Of a stretch of 32,733 nt of DNA, positions 2,312 to 32,733 are shown piece by piece. Made by a program: the position numbers and the translations under genes. Source of the DNA: Actinomycetota bacterium (GTDB lineage: Bacteria; Actinomycetota; CADDZG01; WHSQ01); assembly GCA_009379915.1 (NCBI GenBank), contig WHSV01000003.1:11309-44041 (forward strand), in the 5' to 3' direction. A model generated the notes under the pieces. It ran no database searches, had not been told where the DNA came from, and was given only the letters and a program-made list of their open reading frames with translations. Within the stretch, counting starts at the first letter, position 1. Each line of letters starts with the position of its first letter.

Positions 2312-2613
2312 GTGCGGCGGTCACCGTTCTGGTACTGGTGGCGATCGCCTTCGTCGTGAGCGTGGGGCTCGCGGCGACCCTCGACGTCTATGCCGCCGTG
2401 ATCCTCGGGGGCATCCTTGCCTTCGGAGCACTCGCACTGGCGATCACCAGACGCGCGCAGTCCGGCGCGATCGGCCCGGGACGTTGCCACGAATGCGGCG
2501 GGGTCGTATCGCGGAGCGCTCCTTACTGCAAGCACTGCGGGACCGGTCGGGGCCGTGAGGGGGGCCCGCGGACGGGGGGAGCGCCCGCGGGCCCGGATCA
2601 CGATGAGGTTTAG
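2308..2613 (+). CDS. Small membrane protein with a C-terminal zinc ribbon
   Basis: A 101-residue protein with two hydrophobic segments (about residues 3-23 and 28-47) followed by a zinc-ribbon motif of two CxxC knuckles, CHEC and CKHC, and a glycine- and acid-rich tail. The ribbon probably lies in the cytoplasm. It overlaps the hydrolase gene by four bases, so the two probably share a transcript. Membrane-anchored zinc ribbons of this size are common hypothetical proteins and no function is claimed. The 3' end overlaps the 3' end of the convergent gene on the other strand by four bases. Confidence 0.7.
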   Translation: MSAAVTVLVLVAIAFVVSVGLAATLDVYAAVILGGILAFGALALAITRRAQSGAIGPGRCHECGGVVSRSAPYCKHCGTGRGREGGPRTGGAPAGPDHDEV

Positions 2614-2858
2614 TTATGTGTCCGGGGGCCGAGCCCGGTGAGTTGAACGCACCGGTCGGCTCGCACGAGGAAGGCCGCCTCCTGGTTGCGTTCGAGAGCC
2701 AGCCTGGCGCCGAGCGACACGACTCGCAGGCCGAGCGCCGATCGAACGCTCCGCCGCGGGCGGCGGGGGAGCTCGCCGGCCAGTCGCCGCCTGTCGGCCT
2801 CCCGAATCCGGTCCTCGAAGATCAGGCCCGCAACGTCTGAAGAAATAATTGGGTGCAT
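2610..2858 (-). CDS. Small basic hypothetical protein, divergent from the CGNR regulator
   Basis: An 82-residue protein rich in arginine, starting MHPIISSDVAGL and continuing with an arginine-rich amphipathic stretch. The overall pattern, a short N-terminal helix with EDRIREADRRR followed by a basic and then hydrophobic segment, resembles small conserved actinobacterial proteins of unknown function. A ribosome site (AAAGGAAC) lies about ten bases before the ATG, which favours this strand over the plus-strand frame covering the same bases. It is divergent from the CGNR gene and shares its upstream region. Function unknown. Confidence 0.5.
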   Translation of the reverse strand: MHPIISSDVAGLIFEDRIREADRRRLAGELPRRPRRSVRSALGLRVVSLGARLALERNQEAAFLVRADRCVQLTGLGPRTHN

Positions 2859-2887
2859 GTCCCCTGTTCCTTTCTACGAGCCGGGCG

Positions 2888-2938
2888 TGTAAGCTTTGTT
2901 CCAAGAGTTGCTCCTTACAATAGTGACAGAGGTGTAAG
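2888..2938. promoter_or_regulatory. Three alternating TGTAAG / CTTACA boxes with a -10 element
   Basis: TGTAAG occurs at 2888-2893 and 2933-2938, with its reverse complement CTTACA at 2914-2919 between them. The second and third form a perfect 6-bp inverted repeat around 13 bases, and the first and second another around 20 bases. A -10-like TACAAT lies at 2916-2921. The array sits between a CGNR-family regulator and a divergent small gene, so it is a plausible operator, perhaps for the CGNR protein itself. Confidence 0.4.
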
Positions 2939-2945
2939 AAGTCAA

Positions 2946-3512
2946 GTGAATTTCAGCCATTACAGCGAGGCCCCCATCCGCTTTGCGGCGGACCTGGTCA
3001 ACACCGGGCCGCTGGACCGGGAGTCCTTCGAGGATCTCGAGACGGTCGCCGACCTCAGGGCGTTTCTGGCCGGCAGCGGCTTCCTCGACGTCGACGATCC
3101 GGAGGCGCTGACCGAAGACGATCTCGAGGCCTTCAGGCGGCTCAGGACCCAGCTCGCCGACGTCTTTCTGGCGAGCGACGAGAGAACCGCGGCGCGCAGC
3201 GTCAACCAGATACTCGACGAGTGTCGCTCCGTCCCTCATCTGACCGATCACGACGATGCGCCGTTGCACCTCCACTACGCGGCCCCCGAGGCCGCACCCG
3301 CCCAGAAGGCGGGCGCGGCGAGTGCGATGGGGCTTGCGCTCGTCCTCGTCGAGGACGGACTGAAGCGCTTTGGGGTGTGCGCCAGCGACGACTGCATCGA
3401 CGTCTTCGTCGACACCTCCAAGAACTCGTGCCGTCGCTTCTGCTCGGACAAGTGTTCGAACCGAACCGCGGTTGCCGCCCACCGAGCCAGAGAGCGCAGC
3501 AAGACTCAGTAG
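2946..3512 (+). CDS. CGNR zinc-finger protein (ABATE-domain transcriptional regulator)
   Basis: With the GTG start at 2946 the product has 188 residues. An N-terminal ABATE-type domain (FAADLVNTGPLD near residues 13-24) is followed by a linker and the C-terminal CGNR zinc finger. The cysteines are C145, C150, C166 and C170, the last within CSNR (the CGNR signature with Ser for Gly), followed by a basic helix AAHRARER. Proteins of this family are thought to be DNA-binding regulators; the ligand of the ABATE domain is not known. GTG 2946 is preferred because homology starts there and upstream codons overlap the promoter boxes. The repeated TGTAAG boxes just upstream suggest self-regulation, by inference. 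Confidence 0.85.
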   Translation: MNFSHYSEAPIRFAADLVNTGPLDRESFEDLETVADLRAFLAGSGFLDVDDPEALTEDDLEAFRRLRTQLADVFLASDERTAARSVNQILDECRSVPHLTDHDDAPLHLHYAAPEAAPAQKAGAASAMGLALVLVEDGLKRFGVCASDDCIDVFVDTSKNSCRRFCSDKCSNRTAVAAHRARERSKTQ

Positions 3513-5982: not shown

Positions 5983-7404
5983 ATGAAGAGGCGAACGAAG
6001 ATCATCGCCACGATCGGCCCCGCAACGCGCGACCCCGAGAGTCTCGAGAAGCTCCTCGTCGCTGGGGTGGACGTCGTGCGTTTGAATTTCGCGCACGACA
6101 GTCCCGACAATCACTTTCGCACGGCCGAGCTGGCTCGCAAGATTGCCGGTGCACACCAGCGGAGCGTGGGTGTGCTCATCGATCTACCCGGACCCAAGAT
6201 GCGTACGGGGCCCATCGCCGGCGACGAGGTCGAGTTACACGCGGGCCAGCGATTCGTGCTCACGCGGGAGCGCATCGATGGCAACAAGCGGGGAGTCTCG
6301 ACCACCGTGACGGCGCTCGCCCAAATGCTGTCCGAGGGAGATGAGATCTACCTCGCCGACGGTGAGATCGTGCTGCGGGTTGCGGTCATCGAGGGCTCGG
6401 AAGTGCACACCGAGGTTCTGACACAGGGAATTCTTCGCTCTCGCAAAGGGATGCACATTCCGGGGGCCGAACGTCAAATCCAAGCCTTCACGGATGCGGA
6501 TCGGGAGACCCTCGAGCTTGCGCTCAAGATGAAGGCGAACTTCATCGGCCTATCGTTCATTCGCGACGCGGACGACCTCAGGCGGGCGCGCGAGGCGCTG
6601 CCCAAGCGGGGTTACAGGCCGCACCTTCTGGCGAAGATCGAAACCCGTTCCGCGCTCGACAACCTGGGCGAGATCATCGACGCTTCCGACGCGGTCATGG
6701 TCGCCCGCGGAGATCTGGGCATCCAGACGCCGCTTCGCCGGGTGCCGTTGCTGCAAAAGGAGATCATCCGGCTCTGCAACCAACGGGGCGTACCCGTTGT
6801 GACCGCGACTCAGATGCTCGAGTCCATGACACGATCGTCGCTGCCCACGCGCGCGGAGGTGACCGACGTGGCCAACGCCGTATTGGACGGCACCGACGCG
6901 CTGATGCTGTCGGAGGAGACGGCGGTGGGCGACTACCCCGCGACGACGGTCGAGACGATGGCGGCGATCGCTGAGGAGTCGGAGCAGCAGGCTCGGGTCC
7001 ACGCAGAGCCCGAGACCCGGAGGAGGGACGACGACCGCGTCTCCTGGGCCGTCGCTCACGCAGGTGTAGCTGCAGCGGAGGACCTGGGAGTGCAGGCCAT
7101 CCTTTGTCCCACTCGAACCGGATCGACGGTGCGGCGCGTGGCAGCGTTTCGGCCCAGCATGCCGGTCGTGGGGATAGCGTCGCGCGATCAGACCCTCGGC
7201 GTATTGGCCTTGAATTGGGGGGTAATCCCGCTCTATACGAGGGATCTGGGTGAGGCGCGCGACATGCGCGAGGAGACTGACAGAGCTGTGTCTGCGGCTC
7301 GCGCCGCCGGGCTCGCAAACGAGAGGGAACTCGTCGCGGTCGTAGCGGGAAGTCCCGGCCCCCGAGCCGGGCGCACGGACTTCATGCGCATAGTCAGGTG
7401 CTGA
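5983..7404 (+). CDS. pyk: Pyruvate kinase
   Basis: A 473-residue glycolytic enzyme that converts phosphoenolpyruvate and ADP to pyruvate and ATP. Family blocks seen in order are KIIATIGPAT, VVRLNFAHDS, LIDLPGPKMRTG, FIGLSFIRDADD, the active-site LLAKIET, MVARGDLGIQ, ATQMLESM with PTRAEVTDVANAVLDG, and the C-terminal domain with CPTRTGSTVRRVAAFRP. Two small departures from the common pattern are NFAHD for NFSHG and GIQTP for GVE; catalytic lysine, arginine and acidic residues are kept. ATG 5983 is chosen because homology begins there and GGGGAAGG lies just upstream. Pyruvate made here may feed the nearby 2-oxoacid enzymes. Confidence 0.96.
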   Translation: MKRRTKIIATIGPATRDPESLEKLLVAGVDVVRLNFAHDSPDNHFRTAELARKIAGAHQRSVGVLIDLPGPKMRTGPIAGDEVELHAGQRFVLTRERIDGNKRGVSTTVTALAQMLSEGDEIYLADGEIVLRVAVIEGSEVHTEVLTQGILRSRKGMHIPGAERQIQAFTDADRETLELALKMKANFIGLSFIRDADDLRRAREALPKRGYRPHLLAKIETRSALDNLGEIIDASDAVMVARGDLGIQTPLRRVPLLQKEIIRLCNQRGVPVVTATQMLESMTRSSLPTRAEVTDVANAVLDGTDALMLSEETAVGDYPATTVETMAAIAEESEQQARVHAEPETRRRDDDRVSWAVAHAGVAAAEDLGVQAILCPTRTGSTVRRVAAFRPSMPVVGIASRDQTLGVLALNWGVIPLYTRDLGEARDMREETDRAVSAARAAGLANERELVAVVAGSPGPRAGRTDFMRIVRC

Positions 7405-7417
7405 GGGCCGCGGCCCT
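7404..7417. terminator. Perfect 14-bp palindrome overlapping the pyk stop codon
   Basis: AGGGCCGCGGCCCT is self-complementary and begins in the last base of the pyk TGA. It could fold into a short hairpin that slows polymerase or protects the 3' end, but no T tract follows. Terminator function is doubtful. Confidence 0.25.
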
Positions 7418-7531
7418 GTCCTCGGCCGAGCGGTAATCTCAGGGGACGACCACACTTTCTGCAGCAGATCACGCAGGGATGAACGGTGCTTCACGGAGGG
7501 TTTCTCGTCCTAGAGGAGGGTTCGCACCCGG

Positions 7532-8959
7532 ATGGCTACTGAGATCAAGATGCCGCAACTCGGCGAGTCGGTTGTCGAAGGAACCATCACCAGGTGGCTC
7601 AAGCAGGAGGGGGACACCATCCAGGAGGACGAGCTCCTCGTCGAGGTCTCCACCGACAAGGTCGACTCCGAGGTTCCCTCCTCGGCATCCGGCACGATCG
7701 AGCGGATCCTGGTCCAGGAGGGCGACACGGTGAAGGTCGGAACCGCGATCGCGCTGGTCGGCGAGGGCGGCGAGTCCTCGGGGAACGGCCGGGGGCCCGC
7801 AGGGGAGCAACAGGAGGAAGCTTCCGAGGCGCCGGTGCAGCAGGCCGGAGAGGAGCAACAGGAGCCCGCCGCGGATTCCGGGGAGTCGGACCGGCAGGCG
7901 GCTCGAGCGGAGTCGGAAACCGCCGGGGACGAGGCCGAGGAGGCCGTCGCCGCCAAGGAGGGCACCGCCTCCGACAAGGCTGCGGCCGCGGGGGACACCT
8001 CGAAGCGGGGGATCATCTCGCCGCTCGTGAGGCGCCTGGCGGACGAGCATTCAGTCGAGCTCGACCAGATCGAGGGCACGGGAACCGGTGGCCGGATCCG
8101 CAAGCAGGACATCCTGAAGTTCGTCGAGCGGCAGAAGGCCCGACCCGCGGCGGTGGCGACCGAGCAGGCCGAGGCGGCGCCGGCTCCGAAAGAGCGCAAG
8201 CCCGAGGCCCAGCCGGCCGCGGTCTCTCGAGAGGCCGGAGAGCGCGAGACCCTCGTGCCGTGGAACAACATCCGCCGGCGCACCGCGGAGCACATGGTGG
8301 CCAGCTCCCGCGAGGTCGCTCGGGCCTGGAACGCGGTCGAGGTCGACTGGTCGAACGTCGCCAAGCTGCGCGCACAGGCCAGGGAATCGTTCAGGGCCAA
8401 GGAGGGTTTCGGCCTCACCTACATGCCGTTCCTCGCGAAGTCGCTCTGCGAGACGCTGCTCGAGATGCCGGTCATCAACTCCACCTACGACCCGGACCAG
8501 CAGGGGAACGTCGAGAAGCACTACGTGAATCTCGGCATCGCGGTCGCGCTCGAGGGGGGCGGGCTCATCGTGCCGGTGATCAAGAACGCAGACGAGAAAA
8601 ACCTCATCGGACTTGCGCGCGGTGTCTACGACGTCGCGACGCGCGCTCGTTCCAAGAAGCTGACGCCGGACGATCTCACGGACGGGACCTTCAGCATCAC
8701 GAACCCGGGTCCGTTCGGATCGATCATGTCGGTCCCGATCATTCCTCGGAGCCAGACCGCCATCCTAGCCTTCGAGGCAATCACCAAGCAGGTCGTTGCG
8801 ACAGAGGACGACCAGATCGCCATCCGCCATATGGGCATCCTCGACATGTCGTGGGATCACCGGGCTATCGACGGAGCGGAGGCGGCGCAGTTCTTGGCCC
8901 GGTTGAAGGAGCGCATCGAGACGAGTGACTTCTCGGCGGAGTTGCAGCAATATTCATGA
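7532..8959 (+). CDS. bkdC: Dihydrolipoamide acyltransferase (E2) of a 2-oxoacid dehydrogenase complex
   Basis: A 475-residue E2 core protein. The N-terminal lipoyl domain (about 1-78) carries the lipoylated lysine K43 in STDKVDSEV. A long acidic, Ala/Glu/Gln-rich linker follows (about 80-155), then the peripheral subunit-binding domain (about 161-199, ISPLVRRLADEH...GTGGRIRKQDIL), a second linker and the acyltransferase domain (about 240-475). The catalytic H443 and D447 lie in DHRAIDG. A single lipoyl domain is present. GAGGAGG is placed suitably before the ATG. The stop overlaps the lipB start in ATGA. The acyl group is more likely branched-chain than acetyl, judging from the E1-alpha motif downstream; the E2 sequence alone does not decide it. 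Confidence 0.95.
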   Translation: MATEIKMPQLGESVVEGTITRWLKQEGDTIQEDELLVEVSTDKVDSEVPSSASGTIERILVQEGDTVKVGTAIALVGEGGESSGNGRGPAGEQQEEASEAPVQQAGEEQQEPAADSGESDRQAARAESETAGDEAEEAVAAKEGTASDKAAAAGDTSKRGIISPLVRRLADEHSVELDQIEGTGTGGRIRKQDILKFVERQKARPAAVATEQAEAAPAPKERKPEAQPAAVSREAGERETLVPWNNIRRRTAEHMVASSREVARAWNAVEVDWSNVAKLRAQARESFRAKEGFGLTYMPFLAKSLCETLLEMPVINSTYDPDQQGNVEKHYVNLGIAVALEGGGLIVPVIKNADEKNLIGLARGVYDVATRARSKKLTPDDLTDGTFSITNPGPFGSIMSVPIIPRSQTAILAFEAITKQVVATEDDQIAIRHMGILDMSWDHRAIDGAEAAQFLARLKERIETSDFSAELQQYS

Positions 8960-18829: not shown

Positions 18830-19198
18830 CTACTCCGGCGACGGCGTGATACGCACCTCGGCGAAGCTTCCCTCACCGTCCTCGCCGATTTCCAGCACCT
18901 CGATGGAATAGTCGCCGGCCGTGAAGGAGTCGCCTTCCTGCAGTCCGGTGAACTTTTCGGATGTCTCGGCGTCGGGATCGTGGCCAAAGACGCTGAACTG
19001 GGCACCCGATTCGAGGATGTTTCCCACGCCGACATCGAGCTCGCCGAGCGACGGCTGGGTTCCCTGGTAGATCTTCTGGCTCAGCGAGTCGTCCTCGGCG
19101 CCTCCACCGTTGTCGCCGCCGCTGTCACCTCCGCAGCCCGCGAGCAGCAACCCAGCGGCAAGCAGCAGGAACGCCATGGGCTTTCTAGTCCCGCTCAA
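18830..19198 (-). CDS. Small lipoprotein next to the calpain-like protease
   Basis: A 122-residue lipoprotein. The TTG start at 19198 is chosen because it supplies the basic n-region (SGTRKP) before the hydrophobic core; ATG 19177 would leave the signal without positive charge. The lipobox is LLAGC, with C22 lipidated. A Gly/Asp/Glu-rich linker follows, then a beta-rich domain (SFTAGDYSIEVLEI, SFAEVRITPSPE) about 75 residues long. The gene overlaps the end of the calpain-like gene by 14 bases, so the two are co-transcribed and probably coupled. A role as membrane-side partner, inhibitor or anchor for the protease is inference only. Confidence 0.75.
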   Translation of the reverse strand: MSGTRKPMAFLLLAAGLLLAGCGGDSGGDNGGGAEDDSLSQKIYQGTQPSLGELDVGVGNILESGAQFSVFGHDPDAETSEKFTGLQEGDSFTAGDYSIEVLEIGEDGEGSFAEVRITPSPE

Positions 19199-20543
19199 GA
19201 TCGTTCACCACCACCGCATTGAGGTTGTCCTGAAATTCCTCGAAGGTCAGCACGGTATCGCCCTCACTCGTGCCCCACGGATTGCGGATCGTCACGGTGC
19301 CGGCCTCCGGATCGACATCGGTCACATAGTAGGCGTGGGATGCATAGAGCTCGCTGTCCTCGTAGAGCGGCTTCTTCTCGCCGTCGTCGCTGCTGAGGGT
19401 CTCGACCGTGATCGCCGAACCATCGTTAAGCGAGTCGTGGAGAGCCTCGATGCTCACGTCGCCGGCGTCGGAGCGATCGCTCTCGCTCCCGGTGAGGTGC
19501 TCCAGGGCTTCGTTGGTGAAGCCTCCCTCGATCTCTCCGTAGCTCCCGTGGTACTGGGCGTAGGCCTTCTCGATCAGCATGACCCAGAGCTCCGGGTTGG
19601 TTTCGCCGTCGGGCACATCGCCGGGACCCGCGAATTCGGTCGAGCCATCGGTGGCCGGGATGTGGGGACCGACCACGATGTCGACCGGGTCGCCGTCGTC
19701 GTAGAAGGTGACGGTGAAGGTTCCATTCTCGTTCGGACGAATGATGTCGCGGATTAGTTCCGGGTTCTGCTGAGCGACCTCGGCAAGGGATGCGAGCAGG
19801 TAGCAGTCACCCAGGCCCTGTTGGTCGATATCGCTCGGATGGATGGGATGGTCGTCGTCGCCCCGGATGAAGAGGTCACCGGCAAGGTCCTCGTAGTCCG
19901 CGTCGTCGAGCCCATCGTTCTCGACGTCGTCGAAACGAGGGTCCAGATCGTCGGTCAGAGCCATGATGCGCTCGAGGGTCTCGGGGGACGCCTTCTGGGC
20001 GATTGCGTTGAAGAAGGCGCGCCGCTCGCTCTCGTCGGTCCCGAAGAAGCCCTCGCCCATCCCGACAAGAATGAGCGCGAGCTCGGCGTCGTCCAGGTTG
20101 GCGATGACGGCGTTGAACTCGGCCGGGTCGAGGTCGTCGAGGATGTCGGCGATGGCGTCGTGATCGGCTCCCCAGAAACCGCGGAGCTCGTCCCTGATGT
20201 CCTCGGTGGCGTCCTCGACTATGTCGGGATCGGCCTCGACAGCATCCGGGTCGGCGTCGTCGGGATCGTCCGAGCCCCCCGGAGTGTCTCCTTCTTCACC
20301 CTCTCCGTCATCGGAGTCGGGATCGGTGGCGCTCACCTCCCCCTCGGCGACCGAGACACCGTCACCACACTCGCCGCCGGTCACCGAACAGATGGCCTCC
20401 TGCACCTTGTCCACGACCGTGGCGCCGATGTCGGACGCGGACATCACCACCAGGGCGACGACGGCCGCGACGAGGGCCAGAACGCCGACGTACTCCGCCG
20501 AGGTTTGGCCCTGCTGGCCGCGCGCGACCCGGAGACGTCCCAT
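19185..20543 (-). CDS. Calpain-family cysteine protease with a type IV prepilin-like N-terminus
   Basis: A 452-residue protein. Residues 9-18 (RGQQGQTSAEY region) match the prepilin-peptidase site: G12 is followed by Q13, with glutamate E17 at +5, and then one membrane helix (about 19-37). A short segment with C52 and C59, an extremely acidic linker (about 66-118) and a helical region follow. The C-terminal calpain domain (about 230-452) has Q241 and catalytic C247 in QQGLGDCYLL, then LWVMLIEKAYAQYHGSYGEIEGG, H403 in SHAYYVTDVD and N421 in IRNPWG. The triad is complete, so activity is expected outside the membrane. It is the first gene of a two-gene minus-strand unit with the lipoprotein. Confidence 0.88.
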   Translation of the reverse strand: MGRLRVARGQQGQTSAEYVGVLALVAAVVALVVMSASDIGATVVDKVQEAICSVTGGECGDGVSVAEGEVSATDPDSDDGEGEEGDTPGGSDDPDDADPDAVEADPDIVEDATEDIRDELRGFWGADHDAIADILDDLDPAEFNAVIANLDDAELALILVGMGEGFFGTDESERRAFFNAIAQKASPETLERIMALTDDLDPRFDDVENDGLDDADYEDLAGDLFIRGDDDHPIHPSDIDQQGLGDCYLLASLAEVAQQNPELIRDIIRPNENGTFTVTFYDDGDPVDIVVGPHIPATDGSTEFAGPGDVPDGETNPELWVMLIEKAYAQYHGSYGEIEGGFTNEALEHLTGSESDRSDAGDVSIEALHDSLNDGSAITVETLSSDDGEKKPLYEDSELYASHAYYVTDVDPEAGTVTIRNPWGTSEGDTVLTFEEFQDNLNAVVVNDLERD

Positions 20544-32308: not shown

Positions 32309-32733
32309 TTGGCAGCTAAGAAGACCACGGGCAGGAGGAAGAGTGCGCGTCGCAAGACGACTCGGAAACCTGCGGCTCGTAAGTCGTCTGCGCGTAAGTC
32401 GACGAGCCGAAAGAGCACCGCACGGAAGACGACGGGTCGCAAGAAGGCCACGGGTCGCAAGAAGGCCACGGGTCGCAAGAAGGCCACGGGTCGCAAGAAG
32501 GCCACGGGTCGCAAGAAGGCCACGGGTCGCAGGAAGAAGGCGACCCGCAAGAGCACCGCACGGAAGTCGACCGGCCGTAAGAAGGCCACGGGCCGCAGGA
32601 AGAAGGCGACCGGCCGTAAGAAGGCAACGGGTCGCAAGAAGGCTGCGGGTCGCAGGAAGAAGGCGACCCGCAAGAGCACCGCACGGAAGTCGACCGGTCG
32701 CAAGAAGGCTACGGGCCGCAGGAAGGCCACCGG
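32309..32733 (+). CDS. Histone-H1-like lysine/arginine-rich protein, 3' end outside the window
   Basis: An open frame of 141 full codons running off the window end. TTG 32309 is chosen because GGAGG (32296-32300) lies eight bases upstream; ATG 32292 opens a frame that stops after nine codons. The product begins MAAKKTTGRRKSARRK and continues as tandem short units of the form TGRKKA, with ARKST and RRKKATRKS variants, so it is almost wholly Lys, Arg, Thr, Ala and Gly. Such tails occur in bacterial H1-like nucleoid proteins (Hc1/Hc2-like) and in the C-terminus of actinobacterial HU. No globular domain is seen in this part. Binding to DNA or RNA is inferred from composition. Confidence 0.8.
   Translation, partial: MAAKKTTGRRKSARRKTTRKPAARKSSARKSTSRKSTARKTTGRKKATGRKKATGRKKATGRKKATGRKKATGRRKKATRKSTARKSTGRKKATGRRKKATGRKKATGRKKAAGRRKKATRKSTARKSTGRKKATGRRKAT
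32432..32521. repeat. Five perfect tandem copies of an 18-bp unit in the histone-like gene
   Basis: ACGGGTCGCAAGAAGGCC repeats five times without a mismatch from 32432 to 32521, followed by variants. A larger block (AGGAAGAAGGCGACCCGC plus what follows) also recurs about 120 bases further on. Identity at the DNA level, including wobble bases, points to recent slippage or recombination rather than selection on protein only. Confidence 0.9.

What the first reader, a model, noticed from the sequence alone, without database searches (positions are those of the whole stretch)
18830..20543. Calpain-like protease carrying a type IV prepilin leader, coupled to a lipoprotein
The protein has a G12/Q13 cleavage site with Glu at +5 and a following hydrophobic helix, as in Flp/TadE pilins. 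A very acidic linker then leads to a complete calpain triad (C247, H403, N421). Prepilin peptidase processing could place a calpain on a pilus-like fibre or leave it tethered outside the membrane. The acidic linker suggests calcium dependence. The overlapping lipoprotein gene gives a likely surface partner. I know of no described system of this kind.
Basis: partly seen in the sequence, partly recalled or inferred. Interest (0 to 1): 0.68.

Follow-up and report, generated by a model that had tools for sequence, protein, structure and literature searches.

The report
Pilin-tagged calpain toxin with lipoprotein partner
A bacterial relative of the animal protease calpain carries the tag that normally sends pilin subunits to the cell surface, and is made together with a small surface lipoprotein that is probably its inhibitor; the same tag sits on many other toxin-like enzymes, so this looks like a little-noticed way for bacteria to display or deliver protein weapons.

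Summary
In detail: window 19185-20543(-) encodes a Flp-type (type IVb) prepilin leader (G12|Q13, Glu+5), a linker, a helical domain and an intact calpain (C247/H403/N421). A lipoprotein gene overlaps its 3' end. The genome has a prepilin peptidase and a Tad locus with a bona fide Flp pilin.

Relatives take it further. Two other prepilin-calpain-lipoprotein pairs exist, in another actinomycetotal class and in an acidobacterium; in the latter the pair lies between two Tad T2SSF (TadB/TadC-type) genes. Related calpains carry other export modules (WXG100), yet the gene directly downstream belongs to the same small all-beta family, related to DUF6406. It ranked first in its own locus in 9 of 9 held-out tests. 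In related genomes the same leader is fused to Rhs shells, HINT plus RNase A toxin, EndoU, thermolysin and hydrolases, often with a lipoprotein next door.

Best reading: a polymorphic-toxin-type effector. Prepilin peptidase/Tad puts the calpain outside the membrane or on a fibre, and the lipoprotein is its immunity inhibitor. Architecture is shown; export, toxicity and inhibition are inferred. The acidic-linker/calcium idea fails (linker not conserved). Known parts: modular pilins, WXG100 calpains, one passing note of Flp-fused toxins.

The parts
19185..20543 (-). Prepilin-leader calpain, 452 aa
   Evidence: ORF; Peptidase_C2 E=2.7e-32; model pLDDT 83.8, pTM 0.77; best solved fold matches are calpain cores
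20508..20543 (-). Class III (prepilin) leader peptide, residues 1-12, cleavage predicted after G12
   Evidence: Flp-only HMM E=2.1e-15; G12, Q13, E17 invariant in three prepilin-calpains
20379..20507 (-). Pilin-like hydrophobic helix, residues 13-55, with Glu+5 (E17)
   Evidence: helices 16-35 and 37-55 in the model (pLDDT about 50-70 here); homologous to the genome's Flp pilin
20367..20390 (-). Cys pair C52/C59 after the helix; marks large leader proteins, absent from true short pilins
   Evidence: C-x(3-14)-C in 22 of 24 large leader proteins and 0 of 8 short ones
20232..20366 (-). Acidic low-complexity linker, residues 60-104
   Evidence: 40% D/E, no K/R; not conserved in L053
19956..20231 (-). 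Helical domain, residues 105-196, shared with the G229 calpain and, in part, G122
   Evidence: model helices 106-196 at high pLDDT; G122 match covers query residues 131-449
19203..19880 (-). Calpain catalytic domain, residues about 222-447; Q241, C247, H403, N421
18830..19198 (-). Partner lipoprotein, 122 aa, overlapping the calpain stop; candidate immunity/inhibitor protein
   Evidence: held-out HMM rank 1 in its locus, E=0.014; profile homology to DUF6406-like partners E=5.4e-5, probability 66.6
19133..19198 (-). Lipoprotein signal peptide with lipobox LAGC22
   Evidence: sequence; lipid-Cys invariant in five partner lipoproteins
18833..19132 (-). Mature partner domain: seven strands, all-beta
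   Evidence: AlphaFold2 pLDDT 85.4, pTM 0.71; no confident match in PDB

Best explanation
The pair is a polymorphic-toxin-type effector and its immunity protein. The calpain is made with a type IVb (Flp-type) prepilin leader; prepilin peptidase cuts after G12; the hydrophobic helix keeps the protein in the cytoplasmic membrane with the protease outside, and the Tad machine either displays it at the tip of a fibre or releases it on contact. There the calpain cleaves surface proteins of neighbouring, probably related, cells. The translationally coupled lipoprotein sits on the outer face of the producer's own membrane and blocks the protease. SHOWN: leader, intact calpain, partner family and its strict adjacency, Tad and peptidase genes in the genome, a homologous pair between Tad genes, and the leader's reuse on toxin domains. 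INFERRED: processing, Tad-dependent export, inhibition by the lipoprotein, toxicity and target.
For: Leader homologous to real Flp pilins. Prepilin peptidase and Tad locus in the genome. In acidobacterial L053 the prepilin-calpain (891-2060) and its lipoprotein (2048-2455) lie between two T2SSF genes (1-891 E=2.8e-20; 2452-3333 E=5.5e-17), i.e. between TadB/TadC-type genes. Partner family: 9 of 9 held-out partners rank first in their own locus and directly after the training set among 707 ORFs; over 7,830 ORFs the first hit not next to a calpain is at E=0.18, and three untrained partners (L038, L055, L056) appear directly downstream of calpains. Partner location varies: lipoprotein in window, G229, L053, L054, L057; no signal sequence in Streptomyces and Promicromonosporaceae. 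The calpain's export module varies too: WXG100 on L054 (4.7e-8), L055 (1.4e-7), L057 (5.7e-4); in the tree the nearest row to the window's calpain is WXG100-type L054 (46% over 218 columns), although the region is unresolved. The same leader carries RHS/DUF6531 (L158, L163, L176), PT-HINT + RNAse_A_bac (L177), PT-HINT (L173), EndoU (L162), M4 (L168, + lipoprotein), DUF6782 peptidase (L157, + lipoprotein), Abhydrolase_8. Calpain is patchy: 1 of 24 genomes of the class, 5 of 396 of the phylum. Precedent: TilA, a lipoprotein immunity for a T7-secreted lipase toxin (PMC10730906).
Against: No experiment. Prepilin-calpains are rare: three found. The window pair is not next to Tad genes. No direct evidence that a 440-residue passenger passes the machine or enters a fibre. 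The partner has no recognised inhibitor fold, and its link to DUF6406 is by profile only; Pfam itself gives no match. The calpain tree does not resolve whether the leader was swapped.
Confidence: 0.58

Rival explanations
1. A surface or fibre-bound housekeeping protease (nutrient acquisition, surface remodelling) with a dedicated inhibitor that guards against premature or ectopic activity, as staphostatin does for staphopain; not a weapon.
For: Protease/adjacent-inhibitor pairs without toxin function exist: staphopain/staphostatin and SpeB/Spi, with lipoprotein-type inhibitors in Bacteroides (PMC2873492). Modular type IV pilins with grafted functional modules, peptidase included, are widespread (PMC8179133). 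A leader-tagged M4 thermolysin with a lipoprotein (L168) looks like a digestive enzyme.
Against: The same leader carries Rhs, HINT + RNase A and EndoU toxin domains; the calpain also occurs on WXG100 modules with the same partner family; the patchy distribution is that of conflict genes.
Confidence: 0.25
2. A Tad-pilus processing or quality-control protease that cuts pilins or other Tad components, held in the membrane by its pilin-like helix.
For: The L053 pair sits between two Tad T2SSF genes.
Against: Calpain is absent from nearly all relatives (1 of 24 in the class), at least some of which have Tad genes (e.g. G002); WXG100 relatives have no leader; the window pair is far from the Tad locus.
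Confidence: 0.07
3. The lipoprotein is an activator, chaperone or receptor for the calpain, not an inhibitor.
For: Adjacency and co-inheritance do not tell inhibitor from activator.
Against: Variable location (lipoprotein or leaderless) that goes with different export modules, and low sequence conservation (about 20%), are typical of immunity proteins; the order effector then immunity gene is the usual one.
Confidence: 0.1

Closest known systems
Bacterial calpains, MEROPS C2 (Rawlings 2015, PMC4631099), including WXG100-calpains of Herpetosiphon and Segniliparus
   Same: Same catalytic domain and Cys/His/Asn triad; patchy bacterial distribution; a reviewer there already suggested that the WXG100 forms are T7SS toxins
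   Different: That text mentions no pilin leader and no lipoprotein; here the module is a Flp-type leader and a partner gene family is found
Modular type IV pilins such as PilB of Streptococcus sanguinis (Raynaud 2021, PMC8179133)
   Same: Class III signal peptide and pilin helix with a functional module grafted on, probably shown at a pilus tip
   Different: That survey used IPR012902 pilins; here the leader is Flp-type (type IVb), there is no pilin globular domain, and the modules are toxin-type enzymes with adjacent immunity-like genes
Polymorphic toxin systems (Zhang 2012, PMC3482391); ARC toxins (PMC12605009)
   Same: Shared N-terminal trafficking module, interchangeable C-terminal effector, adjacent immunity-like gene; lipoprotein immunity known for Imm65; PMC12605009 lists Flp pilins once among fused modules
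   Different: Zhang 2012 mentions neither pilin nor calpain in the text held; PMC12605009 treats Flp pilin as an anchoring element in one sentence, without leader, Tad link or partner
TslA/TilA, T7-secreted lipase toxin with lipoprotein immunity (PMC10730906)
   Same: Effector acting outside the membrane paired with a lipoprotein immunity protein encoded in the same cassette
   Different: Different enzyme, secretion route and immunity family
Staphopain/staphostatin and Bacteroides C10/Bfi pairs (PMC2873492)
   Same: Papain-fold protease encoded next to a small beta-rich inhibitor
   Different: No pilin leader; staphostatin is lipocalin-like by structure, while our partner model gave only weak lipocalin hits (E about 0.2 and above)
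DUF6406 (PF19944)
   Same: Small protein directly downstream of Streptomyces calpains, with the GDxFPV motif; profile-profile match to the lipoprotein partners
   Different: No signal peptide; the window lipoprotein does not match PF19944 directly

Membership tests
Calpain (C2) peptidase | Peptidase_C2 domain above the curated cut-off | tested here: met
   112.5 bits against cut-off 23.8; fold match to calpain cores E=4e-16
Calpain (C2) peptidase | Cys/His/Asn triad and oxyanion Gln | tested here: met
   Q241, C247, H403, N421 invariant in 27 sequences
Calpain (C2) peptidase | Calcium-binding sites of the classical protease core | tested here: inconclusive
   By alignment to the residues listed in PMC4631099: site-1 D96 and E175 correspond to D238 and E318, both kept in three prepilin-calpains; site 2 is mostly missing because the protein ends soon after
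Type IVb (Flp) pilin | Class III leader G|x4-E followed by a hydrophobic helix | tested here: met
   Flp-only HMM E=2.1e-15; E17 invariant in 15 leaders
Type IVb (Flp) pilin | Short protein (about 50-80 aa) matching Flp_Fap PF04964 | tested here: not met
   452 aa; no PF04964 match. It carries a Flp leader but is not a Flp pilin
Type IVb (Flp) pilin | Incorporation into a fibre | not testable with these tools
   needs microscopy or biochemistry
Polymorphic toxin system | N-terminal trafficking module shared among proteins with different C-terminal effectors | tested here: met
   same leader on Rhs, HINT/RNase A, EndoU, M4, DUF6782, hydrolases
Polymorphic toxin system | Same effector domain found on other trafficking modules | tested here: met
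   calpain on WXG100 modules
Polymorphic toxin system | Cognate immunity gene directly downstream | tested here: inconclusive
   homologous gene family directly downstream in 13 loci; inhibition itself untested
Polymorphic toxin system | Toxicity to cells that lack the immunity gene | not testable with these tools
   experiment needed
DUF6406 (PF19944) | Match above the Pfam cut-off | tested here: not met
   window lipoprotein has no Pfam match; Streptomyces partners match at 8e-26 and 2e-19; profile-profile E=5.4e-5 supports distant homology only
Tad-exported protein | Tad machinery and prepilin peptidase in the genome | tested here: met
Tad-exported protein | Gene lies in a Tad locus | tested here: inconclusive
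   not in the window genome; yes in L053

The most novel reading that the evidence does not exclude
The Flp-type prepilin leader plus the Tad machine form an unrecognised delivery or display route for polymorphic toxins in Actinomycetota and at least one acidobacterium, marked by a Cys pair after the pilin helix. Calpain with a DUF6406-like immunity family is one interchangeable warhead that moves between this route and type VII secretion.
Probability: 0.42. Interest if true: 0.82.

Novelty: new variant of a known kind. Interest (0 to 1): 0.63.

Why it matters
Whether Tad systems secrete toxins is open: in Myxococcus the Tad-like Kil apparatus is needed for contact killing, but it is said to be unclear if it is a toxin-secretion device (PMC8460266). 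Proteins that carry a Flp leader on one end and a calpain, RNase A or Rhs toxin module on the other, with an immunity-like gene next door, would make that question directly testable. It would also give bacterial calpains and the unannotated DUF6406 family a likely function: protease effector and inhibitor.

Tried and rejected
Calcium dependence from the acidic linker: rejected, since the L053 orthologue's linker has no acidic residue in 45. Chance prepilin-like motif: rejected by homology to the genome's own Flp pilin. A solved-structure relative for the lipoprotein: none by fold (best E 0.16, weak lipocalin hits) or by sequence profile (best E 0.3). A tree to show swapping of the leader: unresolved, two changes against a shuffled mean of 2.7. 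Direct Pfam or NCBIfam assignment of the lipoprotein: none above cut-off. More prepilin-calpains: only L053's own genome in 396 genomes of its phylum and only G229 in 66 genomes of its class. Plasmid collection: six weak calpain matches, none covering most of the query. Promoter and terminator scan: nothing. Literature searches for prepilin/Flp with polymorphic toxins returned only PMC8460266 and PMC12605009 as relevant; subscription journals are not held.

Full report
WHAT IS THERE. Window 19185-20543 (-) encodes a 452-aa protein and 18830-19198 (-) a 122-aa lipoprotein whose TTG start overlaps the protease gene by 14 nt. The larger protein begins MGRLRVARGQQG|QTSAEYVGVLALVAAVVALVV, a class III leader with Gly(-1) and Glu(+5). 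It is homologous to real Flp pilins: it matches the genome's own 70-aa Flp pilin on contig C66 (47% over 45 aa, E=3.5e-7), and an HMM trained only on seven short Flp pilins finds it at E=2.1e-15 among 7,830 ORFs. After the helix come a Cys pair (C52, C59), an acidic linker, a helical domain (106-196) and a calpain domain (Peptidase_C2 E=2.7e-32). The predicted structure (mean pLDDT 83.8) matches human calpain cores (E=4e-16). Q241, C247, H403 and N421 are invariant across 27 bacterial calpains.

SURROUNDINGS. The pair sits on the opposite strand between what look like housekeeping genes (a ferredoxin oxidoreductase beta-subunit-like ORF and a thiamine-diphosphate enzyme-like ORF, read from sequence). 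Calpain is rare in the neighbourhood of this genome: 1 of 24 genomes of the class and 5 of 396 of the phylum. The genome has one A24 prepilin peptidase above cut-off (PilD type, A24_N_bact + Peptidase_A24) and a Tad locus on C66 with T2SSE, two T2SSF, TadE-like and Tad-like proteins and the Flp pilin. The window pair is not near it.

OTHER PREPILIN-CALPAINS. G229, from another class of the phylum, has a full-length orthologue (39% identity) with leader GQGTAEYV, followed by an overlapping lipoprotein gene (L037 4722-6155 and 4286-4729, -). The best match in the collection of 84,980 prokaryotic genomes, from Acidobacteria RIFCSPLOWO2_12_FULL_66_21 (L053), also has the leader (GQTTTEYV; leader HMM E=5.5e-6) and an overlapping lipoprotein. 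The pair lies between two T2SSF genes (E=2.8e-20 and 5.5e-17), that is, between TadB/TadC-type genes. G12, Q13, E17, Y18 and the active site are invariant in all three.

THE PARTNER IS A FAMILY. Genes directly downstream of related calpains in Acidobacteriota, Chloroflexota, Streptomyces-like genomes and Promicromonosporaceae resemble each other and the window lipoprotein. In a leave-one-out test each of nine partners ranked first among all ORFs of its own locus and directly after the eight training sequences among 707 ORFs (window E=0.014). Over 7,830 ORFs in 1.19 Mb the profile found partner genes of 13 calpain loci, three of them not used in training (L038, L055, L056), before the first unrelated ORF at E=0.18. 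The lipoprotein group and the leaderless group, two members of which are DUF6406 (E=8e-26, 2e-19), match by profile-profile comparison with E=5.4e-5, probability 66.6. The predicted fold is a seven-stranded all-beta domain (pLDDT 85.4) without a confident PDB relative.

THE CALPAIN CHANGES VEHICLES. Its relatives are attached to WXG100 domains in Anaerolineales (E=4.7e-8, 1.4e-7) and, more weakly, Herpetosiphon (5.7e-4). WXG100 calpains of Herpetosiphon and Segniliparus are known (PMC4631099). In the tree the row nearest to the window's calpain is the WXG100-type L054 (46% over 218 columns), but this part of the tree is unresolved.

THE LEADER CHANGES PASSENGERS. A leader profile found matches in all ten related genomes searched, most on ORFs of 300-1,500 aa. 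Passengers by Pfam: RHS repeats with DUF6531 (L158, L163, L176), PT-HINT + RNAse_A_bac (L177), PT-HINT (L173), EndoU (L162; leader GQATSEYV), thermolysin M4 (L168), DUF6782 metallopeptidase (L157), Abhydrolase_8 (L160, L170, L178). The proteases and several members of an unannotated domain type (L008, L161, L175, L177) are followed by lipoproteins. A Cys pair 30-62 residues after the cleavage site occurs in 22 of 24 large leader proteins and in none of 8 short ones, a simple marker of the effector class. These counts rest on my regular expression and on a small set of genomes.

MECHANISM. Most likely (0.58) this is an effector/immunity pair: prepilin peptidase releases the leader peptide, the helix holds the calpain outside the membrane or in a Tad fibre (tip presentation would follow the modular pilin PilB, PMC8179133), the calpain attacks surface proteins of neighbours, and the lipoprotein protects the producer at the place where the enzyme acts, as TilA does for the lipase toxin TslA (PMC10730906). 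Shown: architecture, homology, adjacency, genomic presence of the machinery, module exchange. Inferred: cleavage, export route, inhibition, toxicity, targets. The main rival (0.25) is a non-weapon surface protease with a safety inhibitor, like staphopain/staphostatin (PMC2873492). Site-1 calcium ligands in the core (D238, E318) are present, site 2 is mostly missing, so calcium dependence is open; the acidic linker says nothing about it.

NOVELTY. Each part has a known relative: bacterial calpains, modular type IV pilins, polymorphic toxins, lipoprotein immunity, and one sentence naming Flp pilins among modules fused to ARC toxin domains (PMC12605009). In the literature I could search I found no description of Flp-leader effectors as a class, of prepilin-calpains, or of a calpain/DUF6406-like partner family. 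Hence a new variant of a known kind, with a reasonable chance of being a new delivery route.

Noticed in passing
L008:5580-6983 (+) and 7026-7559 (+); similar in L161, L174, L175, L177, L026, L027: A recurrent, unannotated ~400-aa domain behind the same prepilin leader, often followed by a lipoprotein; no Pfam or NCBIfam match in those scanned. Probably a second effector/partner pair of the same class and the commonest passenger of the leader in the genomes seen.
   Followed up: partly
L009:4684-7032 (-) (own genome, contig C23): Prepilin leader ORF followed by YD-repeat-like ORFs in a region interrupted by stop codons: an apparently decayed leader-Rhs gene in the window's own genome.
   Followed up: partly
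L058-L062, L064, L067, L069, L071, L075, L077, L083, L094: Myxococcal calpains are followed by a different conserved ~120-aa gene (MAKPPEPIDEVLP...), not found by the DUF6406-like partner profile: perhaps another calpain partner family.
   Followed up: no
L163, L158, L176: Rhs proteins with a Flp-type prepilin leader and Glu+5, in actinomycetotal genomes with Tad pilin genes; in G278 the leader-Rhs lies about 8 kb from a short Flp pilin gene.
   Followed up: partly
window 32310-32733 (+): ORF running off the window end that encodes tandem (K)KATGRKK-type basic repeats, like a histone H1-like DNA-binding protein; the mirrored minus-strand ORF (LRPVAF repeats) is its shadow.
   Followed up: no
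L053:3701-7041 (+): FHA-domain proteins directly downstream of the acidobacterial Tad genes and calpain pair.
   Followed up: no
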